DNA from: a virus
Virus record (IMG/VR): IMGVR_UViG_3300028800_000040
Span: 1 to 38,964 of that record
Strand: one strand, 5' to 3'
Length of the DNA stretch: 38,964 nt
How positions within the stretch are numbered: the stretch's first letter is position 1; each line of letters opens with the position of its first letter. Shown here piece by piece: positions 1 through 38,964 of the stretch. Below the pieces are notes generated by a model. The model made no database searches. It saw only the letters and a program-made list of their open reading frames with translations, and was not told the origin of the DNA. The position numbers and the translations under genes are program-made.

Positions 1-127
1 AACATTGAGCGCTTCATCGATGAGTGGGTTGCGTGGGCCGAGGCTAACGATGCCCTTGTTCCAGATGGAAACGGCAACGATATTCGCCTCAATGTCTTCA
101 ACGGAGTTTTCGACAGCGAGGATAATC
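1..127. repeat. Terminal overlap of circular assembly (left copy)
   Basis: These 127 bases are identical to the last 127 bases of the window (38838-38964). The tail-tip reading frame runs through the junction without a break: position 1 is the first base of a codon in the frame that opens at 37086. An exact 127-base overlap is what a de Bruijn assembler leaves on a circular contig at k=127. I read it as an assembly signature, not a biological terminal repeat. Confidence 0.95.
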
Positions 128-2943
128 TCTGGAATCAAGTACAGGCTGTGGGGCGCATGTCTCGTGCGTGCGTCATTCCGATGGGCCGCGACTACGGCGT
201 ATTCGTCAATCAGGACGATGTACCGGTGCAGATGTTCTCTGTGGGAAACATCAAGCAGGATAGCTTCGAGGAAACGTGGCTGGCACTTGATGACCGCGCC
301 AATCAGGTAGAAGTGGAGTTCACAGACTCAACCCGCTACTATCGCACAGACAATCCTCTCGTCTACATGGACCCGGCCGATCAGGCTGCCGGTGTGATTG
401 TCAAGAATACGCGCGTCAAGGGTCAGGGGATTACGATACCAGCTCAGGCGTGGCACTACGGCCATTTCCTCGGCGTCTGTAATAAGCTCTTGCTGCGCAC
501 TGGAAAATTTGAGTGCGATGTGGACGCGGTTGCCTGCCGTCCCGGAAACCTAATCATCCTGCAGCACGATGTTCCGCAGTGGGGATGGGGCGGCCGCACA
601 TTGACCAACTCTACCGCGAATACGGTAAATGTGGATCGGAACGATCTGCCTTGGGATGGAACCACGGCCTATAACGTGATCGTGTTGTTCCCTTCGATCC
701 AGCGCTACACCGGAACTGTAACCGCCGTCACACCTAGTGTCGATTCCACGGGTCTGACTGTCGGTACGCTATTGGGACTCTCCAGCTTTGATAACGCGAA
801 TCGCGTTACACGTGCGGTGGTTGCCGGCCAGGATTGCGCGATCCTACAGTCAGCGCTTGGGCAGATTCTAATCACCCTTCCACCGGGCTTCGCGGCGGCC
901 ACAGGGCAACCGTACATCCTCTACGACACCGATGTACTGGAGACTGCCACAGTGGCCGCCGTGGCCGCCGGAGACAATAACACTCAGGTGCTTACGCTCG
1001 GGACTCCATTCAGCCAGGCTCCGGAAGACTTTTCGGTGTATTTCTACGGTGAGCCGGGCAGTCAGAAGATTGTGCGCGTCACGAATATTCGCAGGCAGAG
1101 CGAAGAGCGCCGCGTGATCGAGTGGATTGACGAGGACGCCGATTGCTATGCGGTGGAAACTCCTGTGGTTGGAGAAACGAGTGCGCAGATCACAACGAAC
1201 CCAGGCGTGACGAATCTAACAGGCGTTGAAGTGTTCGACATTCTGCAAAGCGGAAGCTATTCCGACGCCGTCTCGCTCACATGGAAAAACGGGCAGAATA
1301 CAGAGGGTGTATCGATCTATGGGAGCTATCCCGGCCTTAATGCGCCGAAGATGCTGGCGCGCCTCACTGGCCGCGTTACCGCATGGCGCTTCGAGGTATC
1401 GCCCGGCGTCGAGTGGACATTTACGGTTGTGGGTTTCGATGCAAACAATAACTATGCTGCGTTCTCGACGGCCCCAAGTGTGACGCTTACTGCGGCGGGT
1501 ATCACACAGAACCTGCTCACGGGATCGAGTTTCGTCTCGGGTTTCACTTTCTGGAATACCTCTCCACGAGCCGGGGATACGCTCGCTCCGACGCTTACCG
1601 ACGATGGTCAGGCCGTCTATACGGTAAATGGATCAGCCTTCACGGCGGCCGCCACGTTGCTCACTCAGGTTATTCCTGCAGCCAAGTGGAGCATCGGCAC
1701 AGAGCTCATGCTTTCAGCGTATTTTGAAACCACGGGAACACCTACCGGAAATCTGGTAGCCGATATTTGCTTTCAAAATACATCTGGAACGGCAATCAGC
1801 ACAGCGCGAGCGGTGTTGATTATGGCAGGCTCTGCGGCTGGCCTTACGCGCGTCAATACGCCGATTACGGCTGTACCTGCAGGGTGTGCGCAGGTTTCAG
1901 TTCGCATTCTTGTAGACGGCGGATCGATTAATCTGCCGGTTGGCACCACGTTGACCGCAAGCCATCTCCTACTAGAGATCGGGGCGTCAGGCCAAACTGA
2001 GCCTAGCGTGTGGGCTGATCTCGATGTGAAGGGTAATGTGCTTGATGTGTTTCAGGCTGGATCGAGCGCGGGCCTGCGCAGTCAGGCGTCCACTCTTCCG
2101 GTAGTCACTGGAAGCCTCGCCTACACTTCCGCCGTCAATAGCCTCACGGTGTCTTGGACCAATCTCGTCATACTATGGCCGGATGGCGGTGTCACGTTTA
2201 TTCAGGATGGGTCTCTGCCTGCGATTACCGGCTTAGCTGCCTCAACGAATTATTGGGGGTATTTCTACTGGGATGTAGTGAACGCACAAGTGGTTGCTGC
2301 CGTTCCCGCAACGCCTCTTGGAACCCCTGCGGTGCTTTCTGCGGCAGCGGATGCGGCCGCTCTCGCTGCATGTAAACAGGATGGCCGCGTATCTCTCACG
2401 CCCAACGGTATGGAGATGACCACTACAGCGAGCGGCACGGGCGGCGGCACGGGCGGCGGCACGGGCGGCACAGGCTTGGGGCCTGTTGCCTGCACGGCGC
2501 GCGGGACGGTACTGCAGACTGAGCTAGGGCCGCTTCCTAACACCGCTATTAAAGTTGCGTTTGACCGGTGTGCGGATAAGGGCGAGCCCTTCCGGTTGCT
2601 TACACCAGAGGGCGATTTAGAGGCAATCCACACCGCAGAATGGGTGGCAGTTGATCACGTTTATCGCATTGCGGTTGATGGATTCGAGCCTTTCTTTGCC
2701 TCCGCAACGCACACTCTCTTCGTTGAGGGCGAAGAGAGAGAGAGACCGTGCTACTCAATTGCATCCGGCTCTTACGTGGCAACAGTAAGCGGATATAGGG
2801 AGGCGTTAATTGAGAGAGTTGCGCGGCCTGCTCAGGTGTTACGTATTGAGATGTGCGGTCCAAGCCGAAAGTATCTTGTAGTGGGTGGAGTGTGGACACA
2901 TAACAAGCTTAATCCGGTTAGTGGCGGCGGTTATCTGACTTAA
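1..2943 (+). CDS. Tail tip / host-specificity protein J, C-terminal part
   Basis: This is the continuation of the gene that opens at 37086. Across the circle it is 4,695 nt and 1,564 residues, in the size range of large lambda gpJ-type central tail-tip proteins that contact the receptor. This part (about residues 585-1564) begins inside the conserved tip region, then shows Thr/Val-rich beta domains of fibronectin/carbohydrate-binding character. A Gly-rich linker of GTGG-type repeats follows (about residues 1396-1413), and the protein ends in a Hint-like domain. The frame is open from base 1, so the apparent ATG at 148 is internal and not the start. The fibre gene follows after 38 nt. J-like identity rests on position after the M-, L- and K-like genes, length and architecture. 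Confidence 0.88.
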   Translation, partial: NIERFIDEWVAWAEANDALVPDGNGNDIRLNVFNGVFDSEDNLWNQVQAVGRMSRACVIPMGRDYGVFVNQDDVPVQMFSVGNIKQDSFEETWLALDDRANQVEVEFTDSTRYYRTDNPLVYMDPADQAAGVIVKNTRVKGQGITIPAQAWHYGHFLGVCNKLLLRTGKFECDVDAVACRPGNLIILQHDVPQWGWGGRTLTNSTANTVNVDRNDLPWDGTTAYNVIVLFPSIQRYTGTVTAVTPSVDSTGLTVGTLLGLSSFDNANRVTRAVVAGQDCAILQSALGQILITLPPGFAAATGQPYILYDTDVLETATVAAVAAGDNNTQVLTLGTPFSQAPEDFSVYFYGEPGSQKIVRVTNIRRQSEERRVIEWIDEDADCYAVETPVVGETSAQITTNPGVTNLTGVEVFDILQSGSYSDAVSLTWKNGQNTEGVSIYGSYPGLNAPKMLARLTGRVTAWRFEVSPGVEWTFTVVGFDANNNYAAFSTAPSVTLTAAGITQNLLTGSSFVSGFTFWNTSPRAGDTLAPTLTDDGQAVYTVNGSAFTAAATLLTQVIPAAKWSIGTELMLSAYFETTGTPTGNLVADICFQNTSGTAISTARAVLIMAGSAAGLTRVNTPITAVPAGCAQVSVRILVDGGSINLPVGTTLTASHLLLEIGASGQTEPSVWADLDVKGNVLDVFQAGSSAGLRSQASTLPVVTGSLAYTSAVNSLTVSWTNLVILWPDGGVTFIQDGSLPAITGLAASTNYWGYFYWDVVNAQVVAAVPATPLGTPAVLSAAADAAALAACKQDGRVSLTPNGMEMTTTASGTGGGTGGGTGGTGLGPVACTARGTVLQTELGPLPNTAIKVAFDRCADKGEPFRLLTPEGDLEAIHTAEWVAVDHVYRIAVDGFEPFFASATHTLFVEGEERERPCYSIASGSYVATVSGYREALIERVARPAQVLRIEMCGPSRKYLVVGGVWTHNKLNPVSGGGYLT
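2491..2943 (+). other. Hint (hedgehog/intein-type) domain at the tail-tip C-terminus
   Basis: This is a protein-domain feature, residues about 1415-1564 of the tail-tip protein. It starts with a Cys in the block-A-like context ACTARGTVLQT. It then has a block-B-like segment with SATHTLFV (an S/TxxH motif) and ends with a block F/G-like segment YLVVGGVWTHNK, with His-Asn at 2899-2904. Order and spacing match an intein-like fold of about 140 residues with no homing endonuclease. The residue after Asn is Lys, not Cys/Ser/Thr, so full splicing is not expected. Bacterial intein-like domains of this kind cleave at one or both ends. Twelve residues follow the Asn. The domain call is from motif order only. 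Confidence 0.72.
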
Positions 2944-2967: not shown

Positions 2968-3000
2968 CACATAGTGAACGCATGAAGCGTTCACTATGTG
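2968..3000 (+). promoter_or_regulatory. Perfect hairpin enclosing the fibre start codon
   Basis: The 14-base arm CACATAGTGAACGC (2968-2981) is the exact reverse complement of 2987-3000. The 5-base loop ATGAA (2982-2986) contains the start codon of the fibre gene. No Shine-Dalgarno sequence is visible upstream, and no U-tract follows the stem, so it does not look like an intrinsic terminator. In RNA it would form a stable stem presenting the AUG in the loop, which suggests translational control. It could instead be a protein-binding dyad. Confidence 0.8.
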
Positions 3001-5414
3001 TTATCGTCGCATTGCTCGCTGTTTTTACGGCGGTTTCCTGGGCTACTTCGCCGGCTGTTACCTTAACAGCGTCATATATAAACGTCGGTGGCGGAACCCC
3101 ATTGGTAAATGGGATGCTTTGTGTTACCCCCGTGGATGCCGCAAATCATCCACTTCCGGCCAGCCGTCGCGGTGGAAGTTGGGGTGGCGCGCTCACGTCA
3201 GAAGCTTCGTGCGCAAGCATCACTAATGGCGTACTTGCGAGCGGTTTTCAGGTTGCCGATACCGCGCTGACAACTCCCACGAATATCTGCTTGCGCATTA
3301 CGATCACGGATGCAAATCAGAACAACCGCCAAGTATACATGGCTCCATGTGTGCAGCCGGCAAGCACGGGTCAGAGTTCATGGTGCTCCACGTCCGGTGG
3401 CTCTACGACCTGTAACTTCGATAATTATCAGCCGAATCTTGCGCCTCTGGCTCTCGTTCAGGTGGGCCCTCAAGGAGATACCGGAGCTCCAGGACCTAAT
3501 TGCGCCGCTGATTCACCTCCGGGAACATGTGTATTGTCTAACGTCCAAGCATCTCTGATCGCAGTAGATGCACTTGTGTCATCAAAGGTATCGCCGATCC
3601 CCTACCATTCCGCACTCGTGTTTGCGGGCGATTCGATTTGCTCTAACGCGGTAGGCCTTCGTTGGACAGATTTACTTATGTCAATGAGTCAGTTTGTGGG
3701 ACGGATTGACGCTAACCATAATACGTGTGTTAGCGGAAGGACTATTGAGCAAGTAGCTTCCGCTTATACCGCAGAAGTCTATCCGCTCAGGCCGTCTGTT
3801 ACCGGAATATCGCCCACATTTCTGTTTGTAGAGGCGGGGTCTAATAGCTTACAGGACAGCGGGGATACTCCGGCCGCCGCATACGCCGCGATTGCGGCGT
3901 ATTGGGCGCAAGCGCAGAGCGACGGATTTACTGTAATAGCGATGACGGTCCTTCCCCGCGGCAGTTCGAGCTTAGGTTCTTATACATCCGATAAAATCGA
4001 AACCTACAATAGCCTCGTCCGAGCCGCCCTCGCTCCCGGCGCGGATTATGCCGCCGCGCCGCCGAGCTCGCCACTTTATTCCTATCTGTGGGATATTAAC
4101 AAATATTTCTCCGATCCTTACGACCCAATCATTTTCAGCACGGAGAACGGGATGTATGTGCATCCGACCTACGCTGGCCAGCGTATGATCGCTCAAGATG
4201 TGAATCACTTTTTCGGGGGCGACGATGTTCCGGTCGCGGTGTTTACTGGGCGAAGGGGCATATATAGCTTTACTTGCGATACTAGCGGCCTTTCGCCCGC
4301 GAATAATACCGGACAATTCAACACCTCTTGCGGGGTTAATGTGCTCGACAATAATACCTCGGGCAGCTATAATGCGTCGTTTGGCGCGGCTGCGCTTAGC
4401 GCTAACACCTCGGGATCGAATAACACCGCTACAGGAGCGCAAGCGGCGTGGCAAGTTACAACAGGATCAAATCTAGCAGCTTTTGGTATGCAGGCTCTCT
4501 ACTCAGAAATTTCCGGTTCAAACAGCACTGCGTTTGGCTATAAGGCACTTTTTTACGACACCGTTGGCGGCAATACGGCGGTTGGCGAGGAATCTCTCTA
4601 TTTAGATACAACGGGTACAAATAACACGGCCGTGGGAGTGCTTTCCGGATACGGCAATACCACAGGCAGCGACAATACGTCTATTGGCAACCAGGCGCAA
4701 CAAGGCAATCAAACAGGAGCCGATAATACTGCGGTAGGTAATCTAGCGCTGTATGCGAACACCTCTAGCTCCGCAAATACGGCAGTGGGTTCTGGTGCGC
4801 TCAAAGCAAGTACAGGGGCGGCAAGTGTGGGGGTTGGTTATGAGGCGGCGTATAAAGCTACGAGCGCCGCTCACAATGTGGCTATTGGTCAGTTAGCCCT
4901 GGCCGGGACAACAACAGGGGGAAATAACGTCGCCGTAGGCAATCAGGCCGGTGAATACCAGGCCAACGGAAGCACAGACCTTGTGCCTAATAATTCTATC
5001 TACATCGGAGCAGGCGCGAAGGGAAATTCCAACAGCGATTCAAACTCAATAGTTATCGGGTATAACGCTATAGGTCTTGGCGCGAACACGACAGTAATTG
5101 GAACGCCATCTACGACAGAAACGTTGATCTACGGAATAGAAGCCTATCCATCGCAAACTGCGATAGCGTCAGCAACGACCATTACTCCTACGGCTCGGTT
5201 TTTTCACATCACTGGGACAACAGCTATCAATACGATCACGGCTCCTGCGGCTTGTACGGGTACAGGAACCATGTGCCAGATAACGGTTATCCCAGATGGA
5301 ATCTGGACCACAACTGTATCTGGAAATATTGCTCTTGCATCAACGGCTGTGGTGGGTAAAGCATTACTTTTTACCTATGACTCATCCACAGGTAAATGGT
5401 ACCCTAGCTATTGA
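2982..5414 (+). CDS. Tail fibre/adhesin with signal peptide, SGNH hydrolase domain and YadA-like head repeats
   Basis: 810 residues. Residues 1-21 form a classic Sec signal peptide (MKRS, hydrophobic core, AVSWA cleavage region). A Cys-rich beta domain follows, then a short collagen-like stretch (GPQGDTGAPGP, about 162-172). Residues about 210-411 look like an SGNH/GDSL hydrolase: GDS at 216-218 (nucleophile S218), SG at 251-252, GSN at 286-288 and HP at 394-395. The usual Asp three residues before the His is replaced by Met391. About 430-705 holds degenerate NTAxG repeats (NNTAVG, DNTSIG, DNTAVG) like YadA-type trimeric beta-roll heads. The C-terminal ~90 residues resemble receptor-binding tips. 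The position after the tail tip fits a fibre with glycan deacetylase/esterase activity. A signal peptide is unexpected for a virion protein. The in-frame stop at 2964 leaves ATG 2982 as the start. Confidence 0.8.
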   Translation: MKRSLCVIVALLAVFTAVSWATSPAVTLTASYINVGGGTPLVNGMLCVTPVDAANHPLPASRRGGSWGGALTSEASCASITNGVLASGFQVADTALTTPTNICLRITITDANQNNRQVYMAPCVQPASTGQSSWCSTSGGSTTCNFDNYQPNLAPLALVQVGPQGDTGAPGPNCAADSPPGTCVLSNVQASLIAVDALVSSKVSPIPYHSALVFAGDSICSNAVGLRWTDLLMSMSQFVGRIDANHNTCVSGRTIEQVASAYTAEVYPLRPSVTGISPTFLFVEAGSNSLQDSGDTPAAAYAAIAAYWAQAQSDGFTVIAMTVLPRGSSSLGSYTSDKIETYNSLVRAALAPGADYAAAPPSSPLYSYLWDINKYFSDPYDPIIFSTENGMYVHPTYAGQRMIAQDVNHFFGGDDVPVAVFTGRRGIYSFTCDTSGLSPANNTGQFNTSCGVNVLDNNTSGSYNASFGAAALSANTSGSNNTATGAQAAWQVTTGSNLAAFGMQALYSEISGSNSTAFGYKALFYDTVGGNTAVGEESLYLDTTGTNNTAVGVLSGYGNTTGSDNTSIGNQAQQGNQTGADNTAVGNLALYANTSSSANTAVGSGALKASTGAASVGVGYEAAYKATSAAHNVAIGQLALAGTTTGGNNVAVGNQAGEYQANGSTDLVPNNSIYIGAGAKGNSNSDSNSIVIGYNAIGLGANTTVIGTPSTTETLIYGIEAYPSQTAIASATTITPTARFFHITGTTAINTITAPAACTGTGTMCQITVIPDGIWTTTVSGNIALASTAVVGKALLFTYDSSTGKWYPSY

Positions 5415-18296: not shown

Positions 18297-19616
18297 ATGA
18301 AGGGATACAAAGGGTTCAACGAAAAGCTTCAGTGCACGCCAGATGGCAAGGTGTTTCAGTTTGAAGTCGGCAAGGAATACAAGCACAAAGGCGCAGCAAA
18401 GCTATGCTCAACAGGTTTTCATTTTGTAGAAAATCCACTCGCGGCGCTGCGGTATTATCCGCCAACGGGAAGGTTTGCGGAAGTTGATGGAGATGAGGTA
18501 GCTCAAGAAACTGACGAGTCTACGAAGCGCGTTGCGAAAATCCTGCGCATCCATACCGAGATTTCGCTTTCACAGCTTATTGCCGGCGGCGTGAAGTTCA
18601 TTTTGGAAAAGGTTGATTTCGTCAATGCGAAAGAATCAAACACCGGCGACGGCTCGGCGGCCACAAACACCGGCGACGGCTCGGCGGCCACAAACACCGG
18701 CGACGGCTCGGCGGCCACAAACACCGGCGACAGATCGGCGGCCACAAACACCGGCGACAGATCGGCGGCCACAAACACCGGCTACAGCTCGGCGGCCACA
18801 AACACCGGCTACGGCTCGGCGGCCACAAACACCGGCGACAGCTCGGCGGCCACAAACACCGGCGACAGCTCGGCGGCCACAAACACCGGCGACGGCTCGG
18901 CGGCCACAAACACCGGCTACAGCTCGGCGGCCACAAACACCGGCTACAGCTCGGCGGCCACAAACACCGGCTACAGCTCGGCGGCCACAAACACCGGCGA
19001 CAGCTCGGCGGCCACAAACACCGGCGTCAGATCGGCGGCCACAAACACCGGCGACAGCTCGGCGGCCACAAACACCGGCGTCAGATCGGCGGCCACAAAC
19101 ACCGGCGTCAGATCGGCGGCCACAAACACCGGCGACAGATCGGCGGCCACAAACACCAGCTACAGCTCGGCGGCCACAAACACCGGCTACAGCTCGGCGG
19201 CCACAAACACCGGCGACAGCTCGGCGGCCACAAACACCGGCGACAGATCGGCGGCCACAAACACCGGCGTCAGATCGGCGGCCACAAACACCGGCGACAG
19301 ATCGGCGGCCACAAACACCGGCTACAGCTCGGCGGCCACAAACACCGGCGTCAGATCGGCGGCCACAAACACCGGCGACAGATCGGCGGCCACAAACACC
19401 GGCTACGAAGGCTGCGCAATATCGCTTGGCATTGACGGTGTAGCACGAGGCTCGAAAGGATGCTGGTTAACGTTGGCTGAGTGGAAACAAGACAAGGAAT
19501 ACATCTGGCATCGCGTAGACGTTCGCACTGTCCGTGTGGATGGAAAGAAAATCAAGCCAGACACGTTCTATAAACTTCAAGGCGGAAAGTTCGTAGAAAC
19601 CACCCGGGAAATGTAA
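18297..19616 (+). CDS. DUF7666-like protein with 28 nonapeptide repeats
   Basis: 439 residues. The N-terminal ~110 residues (MKGYKGFNEKL... EVGKEYKHKG...CSTGFHFVENPL) match the small domain that often heads phage proteins containing tandem repeats. Residues about 115-366 are 28 copies of a 9-residue unit, NTG-x-x-SAAT, in which only the two x positions vary (Asp/Tyr/Val then Gly/Arg/Ser). Such short-period repeats would fold as a regular beta-solenoid with the variable pair on one face. A non-repetitive C-terminal cap of ~70 residues closes the protein. Function unknown; binding or anti-defence decoy roles are speculation. GGTGAG precedes ATG 18297. The gene sits between the replication genes and the second integrase. 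Confidence 0.85.
   Translation: MKGYKGFNEKLQCTPDGKVFQFEVGKEYKHKGAAKLCSTGFHFVENPLAALRYYPPTGRFAEVDGDEVAQETDESTKRVAKILRIHTEISLSQLIAGGVKFILEKVDFVNAKESNTGDGSAATNTGDGSAATNTGDGSAATNTGDRSAATNTGDRSAATNTGYSSAATNTGYGSAATNTGDSSAATNTGDSSAATNTGDGSAATNTGYSSAATNTGYSSAATNTGYSSAATNTGDSSAATNTGVRSAATNTGDSSAATNTGVRSAATNTGVRSAATNTGDRSAATNTSYSSAATNTGYSSAATNTGDSSAATNTGDRSAATNTGVRSAATNTGDRSAATNTGYSSAATNTGVRSAATNTGDRSAATNTGYEGCAISLGIDGVARGSKGCWLTLAEWKQDKEYIWHRVDVRTVRVDGKKIKPDTFYKLQGGKFVETTREM
18639..19394 (+). repeat. 28 tandem copies of a 27-bp coding repeat
   Basis: Each unit reads AACACCGGC, two variable codons, then TCGGCGGCCACA. The first variable codon is GAC, TAC or GTC and the second GGC, AGA or AGC. Only six of the nine pairings occur (DG, DR, DS, YS, YG, VR). 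Outside these codons the copies are almost identical even at silent positions, with one exception (GGC to AGC in unit 20). This points to recent expansion or ongoing homogenisation. A degenerate 29th unit follows. Because the period is a multiple of three, other frames also stay open here and give spurious ORFs. Confidence 0.97.
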
Positions 19617-27343: not shown

Positions 27344-29431
27344 ATGAGCAATGAGAAGCGTATTCCCGCGTCACTGCCCGTGCAATTTCGCGCGGCGACT
27401 GTAGAGAGCGTGGATACGGAAAAACGCACCGTGACGTTTGCGCTTACCTCTGAGCAGCCGGTGCAGAGGTGGTGGGGCGCGGAGATTCTTGACCACAAAC
27501 CGGCGTCGATTCGGCAAGATCGGCTCAAGCGTGGCGTGCCCTTGCTGTTCGGTCATGACACGAATCAGCATATCGGCCGTATCGAAAGTTACGGAATCAA
27601 GGATGGCAAGCTCACCGTAACTGCGCGCTTCGGTAATTCTGCGCTGGCGGATGAGAAGTTCCGCGATGTGCAGGACAGAATTCTTGTAGATGCCAGTGGC
27701 GGATACATCATCCACGCTTATCAGCTCGAAAGCAGTGATGACGAAAAAGGCGAAACCTATCGGATCACCGATTGGGAGCCGGTAGAGGGTTCCCTTGTGC
27801 CTATCCCCGCCGATCCCACCGTTGGCGTGGGCCGCGAACTGCCGAAAGGCACGCCTGTCTATCCTGCGCGCCGCCTTGGCTTGCAGCGCGATAACGATGA
27901 TGACGATTGCGAGTGTGATTGCCCTGAGTGCGAGGCGGGTAACTGCGCAGACTGCAGTGATGCGGATTGCGACGATCCCAATTGCCGATGCGCCGATGCG
28001 CGCGCATTAAAAACCCCAACCATTAACCCGGCTCCGGCCGAGAATTCGGAGAATCGCAGCATGTCCACACCTGCCACCTCCGCCGGTACTCCGGCGATTG
28101 AAGTAAGCAATAACGATGCAATCGTTGCGGAGCGTTCCCGTGTCGCGGAAATCAGCGACCTGGCCGCGCGCTACCCCAAGCAGATCACCCGCGATCAGGC
28201 GGAGAAGTTCATCAACGATGGCACTGCGGCCGCCAGCGTTCGCAAGCACATCCTTGACGTGCAGATTGACAATGCCAAGGCCAATGAGGTACGCAATCTC
28301 AACATCGCGGGATTGTCGGAGAAGGAAAAGGAGAATTACTCGATCCTGCGCGCCCTGAGCACCGCCGCGATGGGGAACCGCTGCTTTGAGCTGGAAGTGC
28401 ACGAAGAGATCAGCAAGAAACTCGGCCGCTCGGCGCGCGCCACGTCTGCCGGCGAAGGCATCTTCATCCCGATGGACATCAAGATGCGCGCCAGCGATAA
28501 CGAACGGGCAATGCGCGGTTCTGGCATGTATGGCATGAGCCAGCGCACGGGCCTAGATTCGAATAGCGGCGCTACCGGCGCGAACACCATCTTTACCGAG
28601 TACGTTTCGCTGATCGAGCTGCTCCGCAATAAAATGAAGGTCCGCGCACTGGGCGCAACTGTGCTGAGCGGCTTGCAGGACACCATTGCGTTTCCAAAGC
28701 AAGCGACGGCAGGCACTGCAACCTGGGTGGCTGATAACCCCGGTGCGGATGTTGCGGATTCCAACCTCACGTTTGCACAGATCAGCCTCTCGCCCAAGCT
28801 CATCCAGAGCACCACGGGATTCAGCCGTAAGCTGCTTCTGCAGTCTTCCGTGGACGTCGAGGCGCTTGTGCGCAATGATCTGACGCTGATCACCGCACTT
28901 GCAATCGATCTGGCCGCGCTCAACGGCACTGGCTTGAACAATCAGCCGCTCGGCATCTTCGGGCAGACCGGTGTGGGGTCGGTGCTCACTGCCAATGCCG
29001 CGCTCTCCAAGTCTCCGTTCGTGGATATGGAAACGCTGGTTGCGAATGCCAACGCGGATGAGCTTGGCCCGATGGCTTATCTGATGACGCCGAGTGTGCG
29101 CGGCAAGCTCAAAAAGACTCCCGAGCTGGGTAACACCATCGCGCTTCCGATCTTCTACAAGGGCGAGGTGAACGACTATCGCGCCGAGGTTTCCAAACAG
29201 GTGCCCACGTTCGCCATTACCACTCCAACCAACTACACCGGCCACGGCATTGTGTTTGGTGCGTGGAATCAGCTCTTGGTTGGCGAGTGGGGCGCTCTGG
29301 AAGTGATCGTTGATCCGTATCGCCTCAAGAAACAGGGCATGATCGAAGTTACCACCTATGACACGTGCGATGTGAACGTGCGCCACCCCGAAGCGTTCGC
29401 GGTTTGCACGGATGCCAACCCGCTGAGCTAA
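27344..29431 (+). CDS. HK97-type prohead protease fused to major capsid protein
   Basis: 695 residues. Residues about 10-165 are the prohead protease (S78 type) with H71 (FGHD) and S150 (EGSLVPIPAD) as catalytic residues. Residues 183-216 form an Asp- and Cys-rich linker with nine Cys (189, 191, 193, 196, 201, 204, 209, 214, 216). From about 240 on is the capsid protein: a helical delta/scaffold-like region to about 350, then an HK97 fold (TEYVSLIELLRNKMKVRALGA... STTGFSRKLLLQSS... LVGEWGALEVIVDPY). The protease normally cleaves the delta domain during maturation. An internal start could yield capsid alone. Confidence 0.93.
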   Translation: MSNEKRIPASLPVQFRAATVESVDTEKRTVTFALTSEQPVQRWWGAEILDHKPASIRQDRLKRGVPLLFGHDTNQHIGRIESYGIKDGKLTVTARFGNSALADEKFRDVQDRILVDASGGYIIHAYQLESSDDEKGETYRITDWEPVEGSLVPIPADPTVGVGRELPKGTPVYPARRLGLQRDNDDDDCECDCPECEAGNCADCSDADCDDPNCRCADARALKTPTINPAPAENSENRSMSTPATSAGTPAIEVSNNDAIVAERSRVAEISDLAARYPKQITRDQAEKFINDGTAAASVRKHILDVQIDNAKANEVRNLNIAGLSEKEKENYSILRALSTAAMGNRCFELEVHEEISKKLGRSARATSAGEGIFIPMDIKMRASDNERAMRGSGMYGMSQRTGLDSNSGATGANTIFTEYVSLIELLRNKMKVRALGATVLSGLQDTIAFPKQATAGTATWVADNPGADVADSNLTFAQISLSPKLIQSTTGFSRKLLLQSSVDVEALVRNDLTLITALAIDLAALNGTGLNNQPLGIFGQTGVGSVLTANAALSKSPFVDMETLVANANADELGPMAYLMTPSVRGKLKKTPELGNTIALPIFYKGEVNDYRAEVSKQVPTFAITTPTNYTGHGIVFGAWNQLLVGEWGALEVIVDPYRLKKQGMIEVTTYDTCDVNVRHPEAFAVCTDANPLS
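28061..29431 (+). CDS. Nested in-frame start for unfused major capsid protein
   Basis: ATG 28061 (residue M240 of the fusion) has GGAG at 28048-28051 with 9-nt spacing, and it sits exactly between the Cys-rich linker and the delta/capsid region. Translation here would give a 456-residue capsid precursor beginning MSTPATSAGTPAIEV. That would solve the stoichiometry problem, since far fewer proteases than capsid subunits are needed. It is analogous in logic to the nested C/Nu3 genes of lambda. The start is inferred from sequence only. Confidence 0.5.
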   Translation: MSTPATSAGTPAIEVSNNDAIVAERSRVAEISDLAARYPKQITRDQAEKFINDGTAAASVRKHILDVQIDNAKANEVRNLNIAGLSEKEKENYSILRALSTAAMGNRCFELEVHEEISKKLGRSARATSAGEGIFIPMDIKMRASDNERAMRGSGMYGMSQRTGLDSNSGATGANTIFTEYVSLIELLRNKMKVRALGATVLSGLQDTIAFPKQATAGTATWVADNPGADVADSNLTFAQISLSPKLIQSTTGFSRKLLLQSSVDVEALVRNDLTLITALAIDLAALNGTGLNNQPLGIFGQTGVGSVLTANAALSKSPFVDMETLVANANADELGPMAYLMTPSVRGKLKKTPELGNTIALPIFYKGEVNDYRAEVSKQVPTFAITTPTNYTGHGIVFGAWNQLLVGEWGALEVIVDPYRLKKQGMIEVTTYDTCDVNVRHPEAFAVCTDANPLS

Positions 29432-37085: not shown

Positions 37086-38964
37086 GTGAGCGCTGAGATT
37101 ATTCCGTTTCAATCGTACGATACAAAGGTTGCGGCGGAGACAAAAGATGCCGCTGCGCTTGCTTCGCTTATTCATCTTGTTCGCGTGCAAAACGCGCTGA
37201 TGCCATCGGCATCGCGGTCCGAGCAATCGTTGCTGTGGGAGCAATGCAAGACTGTAGCAAACTACCTCGACGAGGCATTGCGGCCGGAATGGCGTCTCTT
37301 GTCGGTATCGCTCAACGGCCGTATTCTTTCCGCCGTCGAGCGTGAGCACGTGTTACCGCGCGCCGGCGATTGGATTGTAGTAACGCCACAGGTGCAAGGC
37401 GGATCGGTATGGCGCACGCTTGCACAGGTGGCCGTGATGGCGGCCGCCGTCGCGGCTACAGTGTTCTTGGGGCCGGAATTCGCGACGCTGTTCGGTGTCT
37501 CGATGGCAATGGGCCAGGCTATGGCCGCCGTCACTGCCGGCCTGATCAGCATCGGCGGCAATCTCCTGATCAACACATTCATGGGGGCAACGCCCGCGAG
37601 CCGCGCTCAAACCCCGAGTTGGGCATTCGACGGGCCGCAATCACTCGCTCAGCCTGGCATCGTAATTCCAAAGGGATACGGGACTTTCCAGCCTGGCGGC
37701 AACGTCATCGCATCCTTTGTTGACGTAGAAGGCTCGAACCAATACATCAATGCGCTCATGTGTTACGGTTTTGGGCCTGCGCGCAGCATCTCGGCTATCC
37801 AGATCAACGGCAAAGATATTGGCACGTATCAGAATGCGCAGTATTGGATACGTCTCGGCACAAACGATCAGACTGCGATCCCCGCCTTTAATCGCATCGT
37901 AAATGGATACCCACAGCAAGTGCAGGTAACGTGCGCTGGCGGTCCTGTGGTCGTTCCGGGAACGGGTGATCTAACCCAAGCCCTGCAGGTTGATGTGCAG
38001 TTTCCTGTGGGCGTGTATTACGTGTCGGGGGCCGGCAATAATCTCCCATGCAAAGTGATCTACAAGGTGGAGTATGCGGTCAGCGGTACAGGTGCCTGGA
38101 AATCTGTTCTCCAGCCGAACGAAACGCAAGACGTTGTGATCTATAACGGCGATGGCACTGTTTCTGATTCCACGCCGAAATGGGGGTTGATGTGGACTGG
38201 ATGTGCGCCTAACTCGGGAATCGTGCTTAAGGCGGACAATGGATCACATAAGCCCGGCGATCCCGGCAGTGTCACAGAGGACGTGACGCTCTATAACCCG
38301 GACGGATCGCACACCACAAGTAGCCAGACGTTTCAGGGCGAGTGGCAGCCGATTGATACGACGATCAATCAGGTTCTCGTCAACAGTTGGATGGATGGCT
38401 GGGTACAGTACGTCAACGATACGACGCAGGCTGTTTACAACCGCACATCGATCTATGGACTCGCACCAAACAAGTACGATGTGCGCGTGACAAAGTATGG
38501 CAGCAATAATGCCGACAACACTGTGACTCAGGGTGATTTCGATAGTCCGAAGCGCGGGCAAGAGCTGTGGATTCACTCGGTCAATGAGATCACCTATCAG
38601 GACTTGAACTATCCGAACATGATCCTTGTGGGTGTGCGCGCCCTGGCCACCAATCAGCTCTCTGGCGCAAATATCAACATCACCGCGCAAATTGAATTCG
38701 GACTGCGCACACTCGACGAAAATATTTTGCCGGCTGCGCTGCAGAGCTTCGAGGAAGACAATCCGGCCCTCGTGGCAGCGGACATGATGCTCGATCCCCT
38801 TTACGGTGGAGGCGCTTATCCCGGCATCCTGCCGACGAACATTGAGCGCTTCATCGATGAGTGGGTTGCGTGGGCCGAGGCTAACGATGCCCTTGTTCCA
38901 GATGGAAACGGCAACGATATTCGCCTCAATGTCTTCAACGGAGTTTTCGACAGCGAGGATAATC
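37086..38964 (+). CDS. Tail tip / host-specificity protein J, N-terminal part (I-J fusion)
   Basis: GTG 37086 with GAGGGT upstream. The frame continues through the window end into base 1 (see 1..2943). This part holds residues 1-626, the last 42 codons being the duplicated terminal overlap. Residues about 1-165 look like lambda gpI: a beta-grasp-like start, VTPQVQGGSVWRT, and a long hydrophobic Ala/Val/Gly region (about 113-163). From about 175 (PSWAFDGPQSLAQPGIVIPKGYG) the canonical J-type tip fold begins, including FGPARSISAIQINGKDI, SWMDGW, YDVRVT and GVRALATNQLSGANINITAQIEFG. No separate I gene exists, so I infer an I-J fusion. It forms the tail tip hub and receptor-contact protein. Confidence 0.9.
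   Translation, partial: MSAEIIPFQSYDTKVAAETKDAAALASLIHLVRVQNALMPSASRSEQSLLWEQCKTVANYLDEALRPEWRLLSVSLNGRILSAVEREHVLPRAGDWIVVTPQVQGGSVWRTLAQVAVMAAAVAATVFLGPEFATLFGVSMAMGQAMAAVTAGLISIGGNLLINTFMGATPASRAQTPSWAFDGPQSLAQPGIVIPKGYGTFQPGGNVIASFVDVEGSNQYINALMCYGFGPARSISAIQINGKDIGTYQNAQYWIRLGTNDQTAIPAFNRIVNGYPQQVQVTCAGGPVVVPGTGDLTQALQVDVQFPVGVYYVSGAGNNLPCKVIYKVEYAVSGTGAWKSVLQPNETQDVVIYNGDGTVSDSTPKWGLMWTGCAPNSGIVLKADNGSHKPGDPGSVTEDVTLYNPDGSHTTSSQTFQGEWQPIDTTINQVLVNSWMDGWVQYVNDTTQAVYNRTSIYGLAPNKYDVRVTKYGSNNADNTVTQGDFDSPKRGQELWIHSVNEITYQDLNYPNMILVGVRALATNQLSGANINITAQIEFGLRTLDENILPAALQSFEEDNPALVAADMMLDPLYGGGAYPGILPTNIERFIDEWVAWAEANDALVPDGNGNDIRLNVFNGVFDSEDN
38838..38964. repeat. Terminal overlap of circular assembly (right copy)
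   Basis: Exact second copy of bases 1-127. Removing one copy gives a 38,837-bp circle and joins the two parts of the tail-tip gene. The physical ends of the packaged genome are not here. They are more likely at a cos site near the terminase genes. Confidence 0.95.

What the first reader, a model, noticed from the sequence alone, without database searches (positions are those of the whole stretch)
2491..2943. Intein-like Hint domain at the C-terminus of the tail-tip protein
The 1,564-residue tail-tip protein ends in a Gly-rich linker and a domain with the Hint order: starting Cys, SxxH block B, and terminal HN. The residue after Asn is Lys, so splicing is unlikely, while cleavage at the Cys or Asn is plausible. 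Self-processing on a host-recognition protein could mature the tip, attach it covalently to a partner through the thioester, or release a C-terminal piece. It directly precedes the fibre gene. I know of Hint domains in bacterial secreted toxins and BIL proteins, but not as an established feature of lambda-type tail tips.
Basis: partly seen in the sequence, partly recalled or inferred. Interest (0 to 1): 0.78.

Follow-up and report, generated by a model that had tools for sequence, protein, structure and literature searches.

The report
Self-processing Hint domain on phage tail tip
The tail-tip protein of an uncultured phage ends in a domain with the fold and catalytic residues of self-cleaving inteins, a swappable module found on about a third of its relatives' tips, which suggests that these phages process or chemically activate their host-recognition protein, though no activity has been shown.

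Summary
The window is a 38,964-base virus record with a 127-bp end repeat. The joined tail-tip gene encodes 1,564 aa and ends in a Gly-rich linker plus a 138-residue domain (2491-2904) with Cys1, SxxH and terminal HN. Sequence-profile libraries miss the domain, but an AlphaFold2 model (pLDDT 84) gives only inteins and BIL/Hint domains among its 50 best PDB matches. Relatives show it is real: 9 of 25 distinct tips carry it, under purifying selection. Cys1 and THN are invariant; no member has a +1 nucleophile. The other 16 tips lack it, many ending just after the same linker, and it moves between tip backgrounds. Best reading: a cleavage-type Hint of the type-A BIL kind, making a thioester at Cys1415 and probably trimming the tip back to its linker. 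Splicing is unlikely; so is release of a useful C-terminal piece (post-Asn tail only 4-13 variable residues). Covalent capture of a partner remains possible. All six copies keeping the block-B His precede a fibre gene with a Sec-type signal peptide; all three that lost it precede a fibre without one (p=0.012, not phylogeny-corrected). Catalysis is untested.

The parts
37086..38964 (+). 5' part of the tail-tip (J-like) gene; GTG start; runs over the record end (last 127 bp repeat the first 127)
1..2943 (+). 3' part of the tail-tip gene; whole protein 1,564 aa
2431..2490 (+). Gly-rich linker (SGTGGGTGGGTGGTGLGPVA); several Hint-less relatives' tips end just after the corresponding linker
2491..2904 (+). 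Hint domain, 138 aa, Cys1415 to Asn1552
2491..2508 (+). Block A: CTARGT; CTxRGT invariant in nine homologues
2701..2712 (+). Block B: SATH; Ser invariant, His in 6 of 9 homologues
2896..2904 (+). Block G: Thr-His-Asn, invariant in nine homologues
2905..2940 (+). 12-residue tail after Asn (KLNPVSGGGYLT), variable in length and sequence among homologues; no +1 nucleophile
2982..5414 (+). Fibre gene, 810 aa: Sec-type signal peptide (about 2982-3044), N-terminal domain with six conserved Cys in its family, SGNH/GDSL hydrolase, tail-spike-like repeats

Best explanation
The last 150 residues of the tail-tip protein are a Hint (Hedgehog/intein) domain of the cleavage type, working like a type-A bacterial intein-like (BIL) domain but placed at the extreme C-terminus, so that almost nothing follows it. 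Shown here: the homologous family, the Hint fold (predicted), invariant Cys1 and Thr-His-Asn, no +1 nucleophile, purifying selection, modular presence or absence after a Gly-rich linker. Inferred: Cys1415, helped by the block-B His, attacks the preceding peptide bond (N-S acyl shift) to give a thioester with the tip body. The thioester is then hydrolysed, leaving a tip that ends at the Gly-rich linker just as many Hint-less relatives do, or is captured by a nucleophile on a partner such as the fibre or another tail protein. Asn1552 cyclisation may clip the short tail. Estimates: Hint fold about 0.97; N-terminal self-cleavage in the intact-His members about 0.6; covalent capture of a partner about 0.15.
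For: Model pLDDT 83.8, pTM 0.77. All 50 listed PDB matches are inteins, BILs or mini-inteins (VidaL 6vgv E=5.3e-7; MchDnaB-1 6riy TM 0.70/0.84; C. thermocellum BIL 2lwy TM 0.67/0.76; BIL2 6y75); named viral matches are Hint proteins or intein-bearing enzymes. The sequence profile's best PDB hit is VidaL, in register from before block B to the C-terminus, though only E=0.17. Cys1, CTxRGT and THN are invariant in nine copies. The residue after Asn is K, W, M, M, M, L, F, A or Q. dN/dS 0.11-0.16 for four pairs with finite dS. The domain sits on 9 of 25 distinct tips and is absent from near relatives whose tips end after the same linker. Literature: type-A BILs end in His-Asn, lack the +1 nucleophile, and cleavage products dominate (PMC4031507); BILs sit in variable regions of non-conserved proteins (PMC5874633, PMC7765530).
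Against: No activity measured. No Pfam, NCBIfam or PHROG Hint model matches. Three of nine copies lack the block-B His (SESM, SGSL, SASL), although Tko CDC21-1 uses a Lys instead (PMC7765530). The block-F Asp position is not conserved by alignment. The window's own copy departs at two otherwise well-conserved positions (RWC to RPC; GPxHxY to GPSRKY). L019, a near copy of L018, is frameshifted inside the domain, which, if not an assembly error, would mean the domain is dispensable.
Confidence: 0.6

Rival explanations
1. Thioester coupling device: the Hint activates the C-terminal carboxyl of the tip so that it is joined covalently to a partner, most likely the signal-peptide fibre encoded next, at or after lysis when cytoplasm and periplasm mix.
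For: Intact-His Hints are followed by a signal-peptide fibre in 6 of 6 cases; His-lost Hints by a fibre without signal peptide in 3 of 3 (Fisher 0.012). L035 has a Hint of the same subtype as the His-lost ones but keeps both the His and the signal-peptide fibre. L018 acquired Hint plus signal-peptide fibre on a tip core nearly identical to Hint-less relatives with another fibre.
Against: The two genes are adjacent, so co-transfer needs no functional link. Six signal-peptide fibres follow Hint-less tips (L003, L005, L026, L027, L030, L046). Phylogeny-corrected pairs are too few: 2 same, 0 opposite on average. No partner nucleophile identified; the expected mature fibre N-terminus is mostly Gln, not Cys.
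Confidence: 0.13
2. Structural remnant: an old intein or BIL that lost its C-extein and activity and is kept as a folded end-cap or adhesin on the tip.
For: Three of nine lack the block-B His; no block-F Asp; no +1 nucleophile; terminal position. In L005, L027 and L030 a different C-terminal extension, Ig-like by eye, occupies the same slot (no Pfam match).
Against: Cys1 and THN stay invariant while other positions diverge to about 37% identity; a mere scaffold would not need exactly these.
Confidence: 0.2
3. Active intein whose C-extein is supplied elsewhere (split or trans-splicing), or in-frame fusion of tip and fibre by recoding.
For: In L002, L004 and L007 the fibre reading frame is open across the tip stop; VidaL, the best structural hit, is a split intein.
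Against: In the window and L018 stops separate the frames. No +1 Cys/Ser/Thr in nine copies. No second Hint piece in the window.
Confidence: 0.02
4. Chance motif match in an unrelated beta-rich tail domain.
For: No curated Hint profile matches.
Against: Structure search and nine homologues with invariant catalytic residues.
Confidence: 0.03

Closest known systems
Type-A bacterial intein-like (BIL) domains (e.g. C. thermocellum BIL, PDB 2lwy)
   Same: Hint fold, Cys1, terminal His-Asn, no +1 nucleophile, sits in the variable part of a surface or recognition protein
   Different: At the extreme C-terminus with a 4-13 residue tail, so no real C-flank to ligate; on a tail tip; His of block B lost in a third of members; too diverged for Pfam/NCBIfam profiles
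Class 1 inteins and mini-inteins (VidaL, gp41-1, SspDnaB)
   Same: Fold, blocks A, B and G
   Different: No C-extein nucleophile; not in a conserved enzyme active site; no homing endonuclease; block-F Asp not conserved
Hedgehog Hog domain
   Same: C-terminal Hint that processes the N-terminal body through a Cys thioester
   Different: Keeps His-Asn end; no sterol-recognition region
HINT processing domains of polymorphic and CDI toxins (PMC3482391)
   Same: Hint near the end of a long cell-surface protein
   Different: There Hint stands before a toxin that it frees; here no domain follows. No toxin found
Lambda tail-tip protein J
   Same: Tip body belongs to the J family (PHROG 31, NF040662-related)
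   Different: I know of no J protein with a C-terminal Hint; five literature searches for Hint, intein or BIL with phage tail or tip terms found none

Membership tests
Hint (Hedgehog/intein) superfamily | Horseshoe all-beta Hint fold | tested here: met
   AlphaFold2 model plus Foldseek: all 50 listed PDB matches are Hint
Hint (Hedgehog/intein) superfamily | Match to a curated Hint/intein profile | tested here: not met
   No Pfam or NCBIfam hit for any of eight members; weak in-register VidaL hit E=0.17
Type-A BIL | Cys1 nucleophile | tested here: met
   Invariant in nine copies
Type-A BIL | Terminal His-Asn | tested here: met
   Invariant THN
Type-A BIL | No +1 Cys/Ser/Thr | tested here: met
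   K, W, M, M, M, L, F, A, Q
Type-A BIL | Block-B His | tested here: inconclusive
   Present in window and 5 others; lost in L024, L032, L051
Type-A BIL | Self-cleavage or splicing activity | not testable with these tools
   Needs expression
Type-A BIL | Closer to known type-A BILs than to other Hint classes in sequence | not tested
   No BIL alignment available; structural ranks of inteins and BILs are close
Class 1 intein | C-extein with +1 nucleophile | tested here: not met
   Variable 4-13 residue tails, no nucleophile
Class 3 intein | WCT motif and no Cys/Ser at position 1 | tested here: not met
   Cys1 present; residue two after the block-B His is Leu, not Trp, in the window copy (PMC7664689)
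Polymorphic-toxin HINT | Toxin domain after Hint | tested here: not met
   Tail of 4-13 residues
Lambda J tail tip | J-family body | tested here: met
   PHROG 31 E=7e-34; Pfam FNIII-A_GpJ above cut-off; NF040662 hit is below its cut-off

The most novel reading that the evidence does not exclude
These phages export a disulfide-bonded fibre through the host Sec pathway and join it, at or after lysis, to the tail tip through a Hint-generated thioester: a covalent, post-assembly way to mount a receptor-binding protein.
Probability: 0.08. Interest if true: 0.9.

Novelty: new variant of a known kind. Interest (0 to 1): 0.6.

Why it matters
A self-processing Hint at the end of a J-type tail tip would be, as far as I could find, a new home for this chemistry: not a parasitic insert in an enzyme and not a toxin releaser, but a removable or reactive end on the protein that recognises the host. 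Its scattered presence, and its exchange together with the adjacent fibre, tie it to host-range modules. The two natural classes, with and without the block-B His, make a direct experimental comparison easy. The signal peptides on the adjacent fibres raise a separate question about how such fibres reach the virion.

Tried and rejected
Profile searches of the domain in Pfam, NCBIfam, PHROGs and PDB sequences: nothing significant. tblastn of two copies in named phages: none. Two scans of bacterial and archaeal genomes, with the Hint and the tip alignment: none, so the host is unknown. More distant J tips (last viral scan) hold no further Hint. Splicing rejected (no +1 nucleophile). Class 3 mechanism rejected (Cys1 present, no WCT). 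Recoded tip-fibre fusion rejected (stops in window and L018). Functional C-terminal product rejected (tail unconserved). Fold search of the fibre N-terminal domain: no reliable match. The C-terminal extension that replaces the Hint in L005, L027 and L030 looks Ig-like but matched no Pfam model. A profile-profile comparison with a known BIL alignment was not done because none was at hand.

Full report
What is there. The window is a complete IMG/VR virus record of 38,964 bases whose first and last 127 bases are identical, so it is probably a circular or circularly permuted assembly. The tail-tip gene runs over the join: 37086-38964 plus 128-2943 gives one open frame of 1,564 codons. Its body belongs to the lambda J family (PHROG 31, E=7e-34; NF040662 E=5.5e-16, below its curated cut-off; Pfam FNIII-A_GpJ above cut-off). 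The protein ends in a Gly-rich stretch (2431-2490), Cys1415 (2491), a block-B-like SATH (2701-2712), THN (2896-2904), then KLNPVSGGGYLT and stop. Every number in the finding checks.

Is it a Hint? Curated profiles do not see it. Relatives do show it. A scan of IMG/VR with the tip body gave 16 loci; L002, L004, L007 and L017 end in a homologous domain, while others with 53-71% identical bodies stop just after the Gly-rich linker. More scans raised the number to nine distinct carriers: window, L002, L004, L007, L018, L024, L032, L035 and L051. Several further loci are copies of the same contigs or the same sequence from other metagenomes. Across the nine, CTxRGT at the start and THN at the end are invariant. 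An AlphaFold2 model from the first four sequences has pLDDT 83.8 and pTM 0.77. Foldseek returns only inteins, BILs and mini-inteins among the 50 listed PDB matches, TM up to 0.70 by query length and 0.85 by target length, and Hint proteins or intein-bearing enzymes among the named viral models. With eight sequences, the best PDB sequence hit is the VidaL intein, in register up to the C-terminus but weak (E=0.17). I take the Hint fold as established to prediction standard.

How it probably works. The first step of intein chemistry needs Cys1 and usually the block-B His; the last needs the terminal His-Asn; ligation needs a +1 Cys/Ser/Thr. The window copy has the first three and lacks the fourth, and none of nine copies has it (K, W, M, M, M, L, F, A, Q). 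That is the defining pattern of type-A BIL domains, in which cleavage dominates (PMC4031507). What follows Asn is 4-13 residues, variable except for a Lys, usually at +2, so a functional C-terminal product is unlikely. What precedes Cys1 is the linker at which many Hint-less tips naturally end, so loss of the Hint by cleavage at Cys1 would produce an ordinary tip. Synonymous changes exceed replacement changes (dN/dS 0.11-0.16 in the L002-L004, window-L002, L007-L018 and L002-L018 pairs; other pairs 0.30-0.47 with poorer dS), so the domain is maintained. These steps are shown; cleavage itself and the fate of the thioester are inferred.

Mobility. On a tip-body tree of 25 distinct loci the Hint is scattered, with at least four supported changes. 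L018 shares a tip body, 86-100% identical in most 50-residue windows up to about residue 1000, with L042 and L044, which have no Hint and a different fibre; identity then falls away towards the C-terminus, where L018 carries the Hint and a signal-peptide fibre. L018's Hint is about 60% identical to the window's although the tip bodies share only 35%. The Hint therefore moves with the host-range end of the tip module.

The neighbour. The window's fibre starts with a classic Sec signal peptide (MKRSLCVIVALLAVFTAVSWA). Twelve of the 25 loci have one; others have the homologous N-terminal domain without it. In one alignment of ten signal-peptide fibres six Cys are invariant or nearly so. Counted over 12 signal-peptide and 10 other fibres, the domain holds 2-6 versus 0-2 Cys (p=1e-4 uncorrected), which suggests that the signal peptide is used and the domain is oxidised in the periplasm. 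All six Hints with block-B His precede a signal-peptide fibre; all three that lost it precede a fibre without one (Fisher 0.012, not corrected for shared ancestry; corrected pairs agree in direction but are too few). Since six signal-peptide fibres follow Hint-less tips, the Hint is not required for such fibres. This is a lead, not a demonstration. The statistic was formed after seeing the data.

Limits. The domain's own sequence evidence is a small family from one kind of habitat record; the host is unknown; named phages and sequenced bacterial genomes gave nothing. The window's copy departs from its family at two positions (RWC to RPC; GPxHxY to GPSRKY), so it may be less active than L018 or L004. 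L019, a near copy of L018, is frameshifted inside the domain, either an assembly error or a sign that the domain can be lost.

Verdict. Of the three proposed roles, maturation by trimming is best supported, covalent attachment remains open, and release of a useful C-terminal piece is not supported. It is a new variant of a known kind: a BIL-like Hint as a C-terminal, swappable module of a J-type tail tip.

Noticed in passing
window 2982-5414; L002 10952, L004 9611, L007 10975, L018 8347, L035 10861, L003 5679, L005 4570, L026 8039, L027 10769, L030 10762, L046 10146: Tail-fibre genes beginning with a Sec-type signal peptide, with extra conserved Cys compared with homologous fibres lacking it. 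How an exported fibre joins a virion built in the cytoplasm is unexplained.
   Followed up: partly
L059, L060, L061 (downstream of a different upstream gene in L061): Signal-peptide fibres of the same domain family also occur in phages without a recognisable J-type tip of this family in the fetched stretch.
   Followed up: partly
L005 end 4531, L027 end 10727, L030 end 10721: In the slot where others carry the Hint, these tips have a different C-terminal extension, Ig-like by eye, with no Pfam match.
   Followed up: partly
window 2982-5414: Fibre combines an SGNH/GDSL hydrolase domain with tail-spike-like repeats resembling YadA heads.
   Followed up: no
window 27344-29431: Prohead protease (S78) and major capsid protein are fused in one 695-aa gene.
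   Followed up: no
window 18297-19616: 439-aa protein with DUF7666 and about ten matches to one PHROG profile (27197), suggesting internal repeats.
   Followed up: no
L019 5621-6088: Near copy of the L018 tip with a frameshift inside the Hint domain.
   Followed up: no
L002, L007, L009, L024, L051 just upstream of the fibre start: TTGAC-like sequence recurs in the tip-fibre gap, possibly a separate fibre promoter.
   Followed up: no
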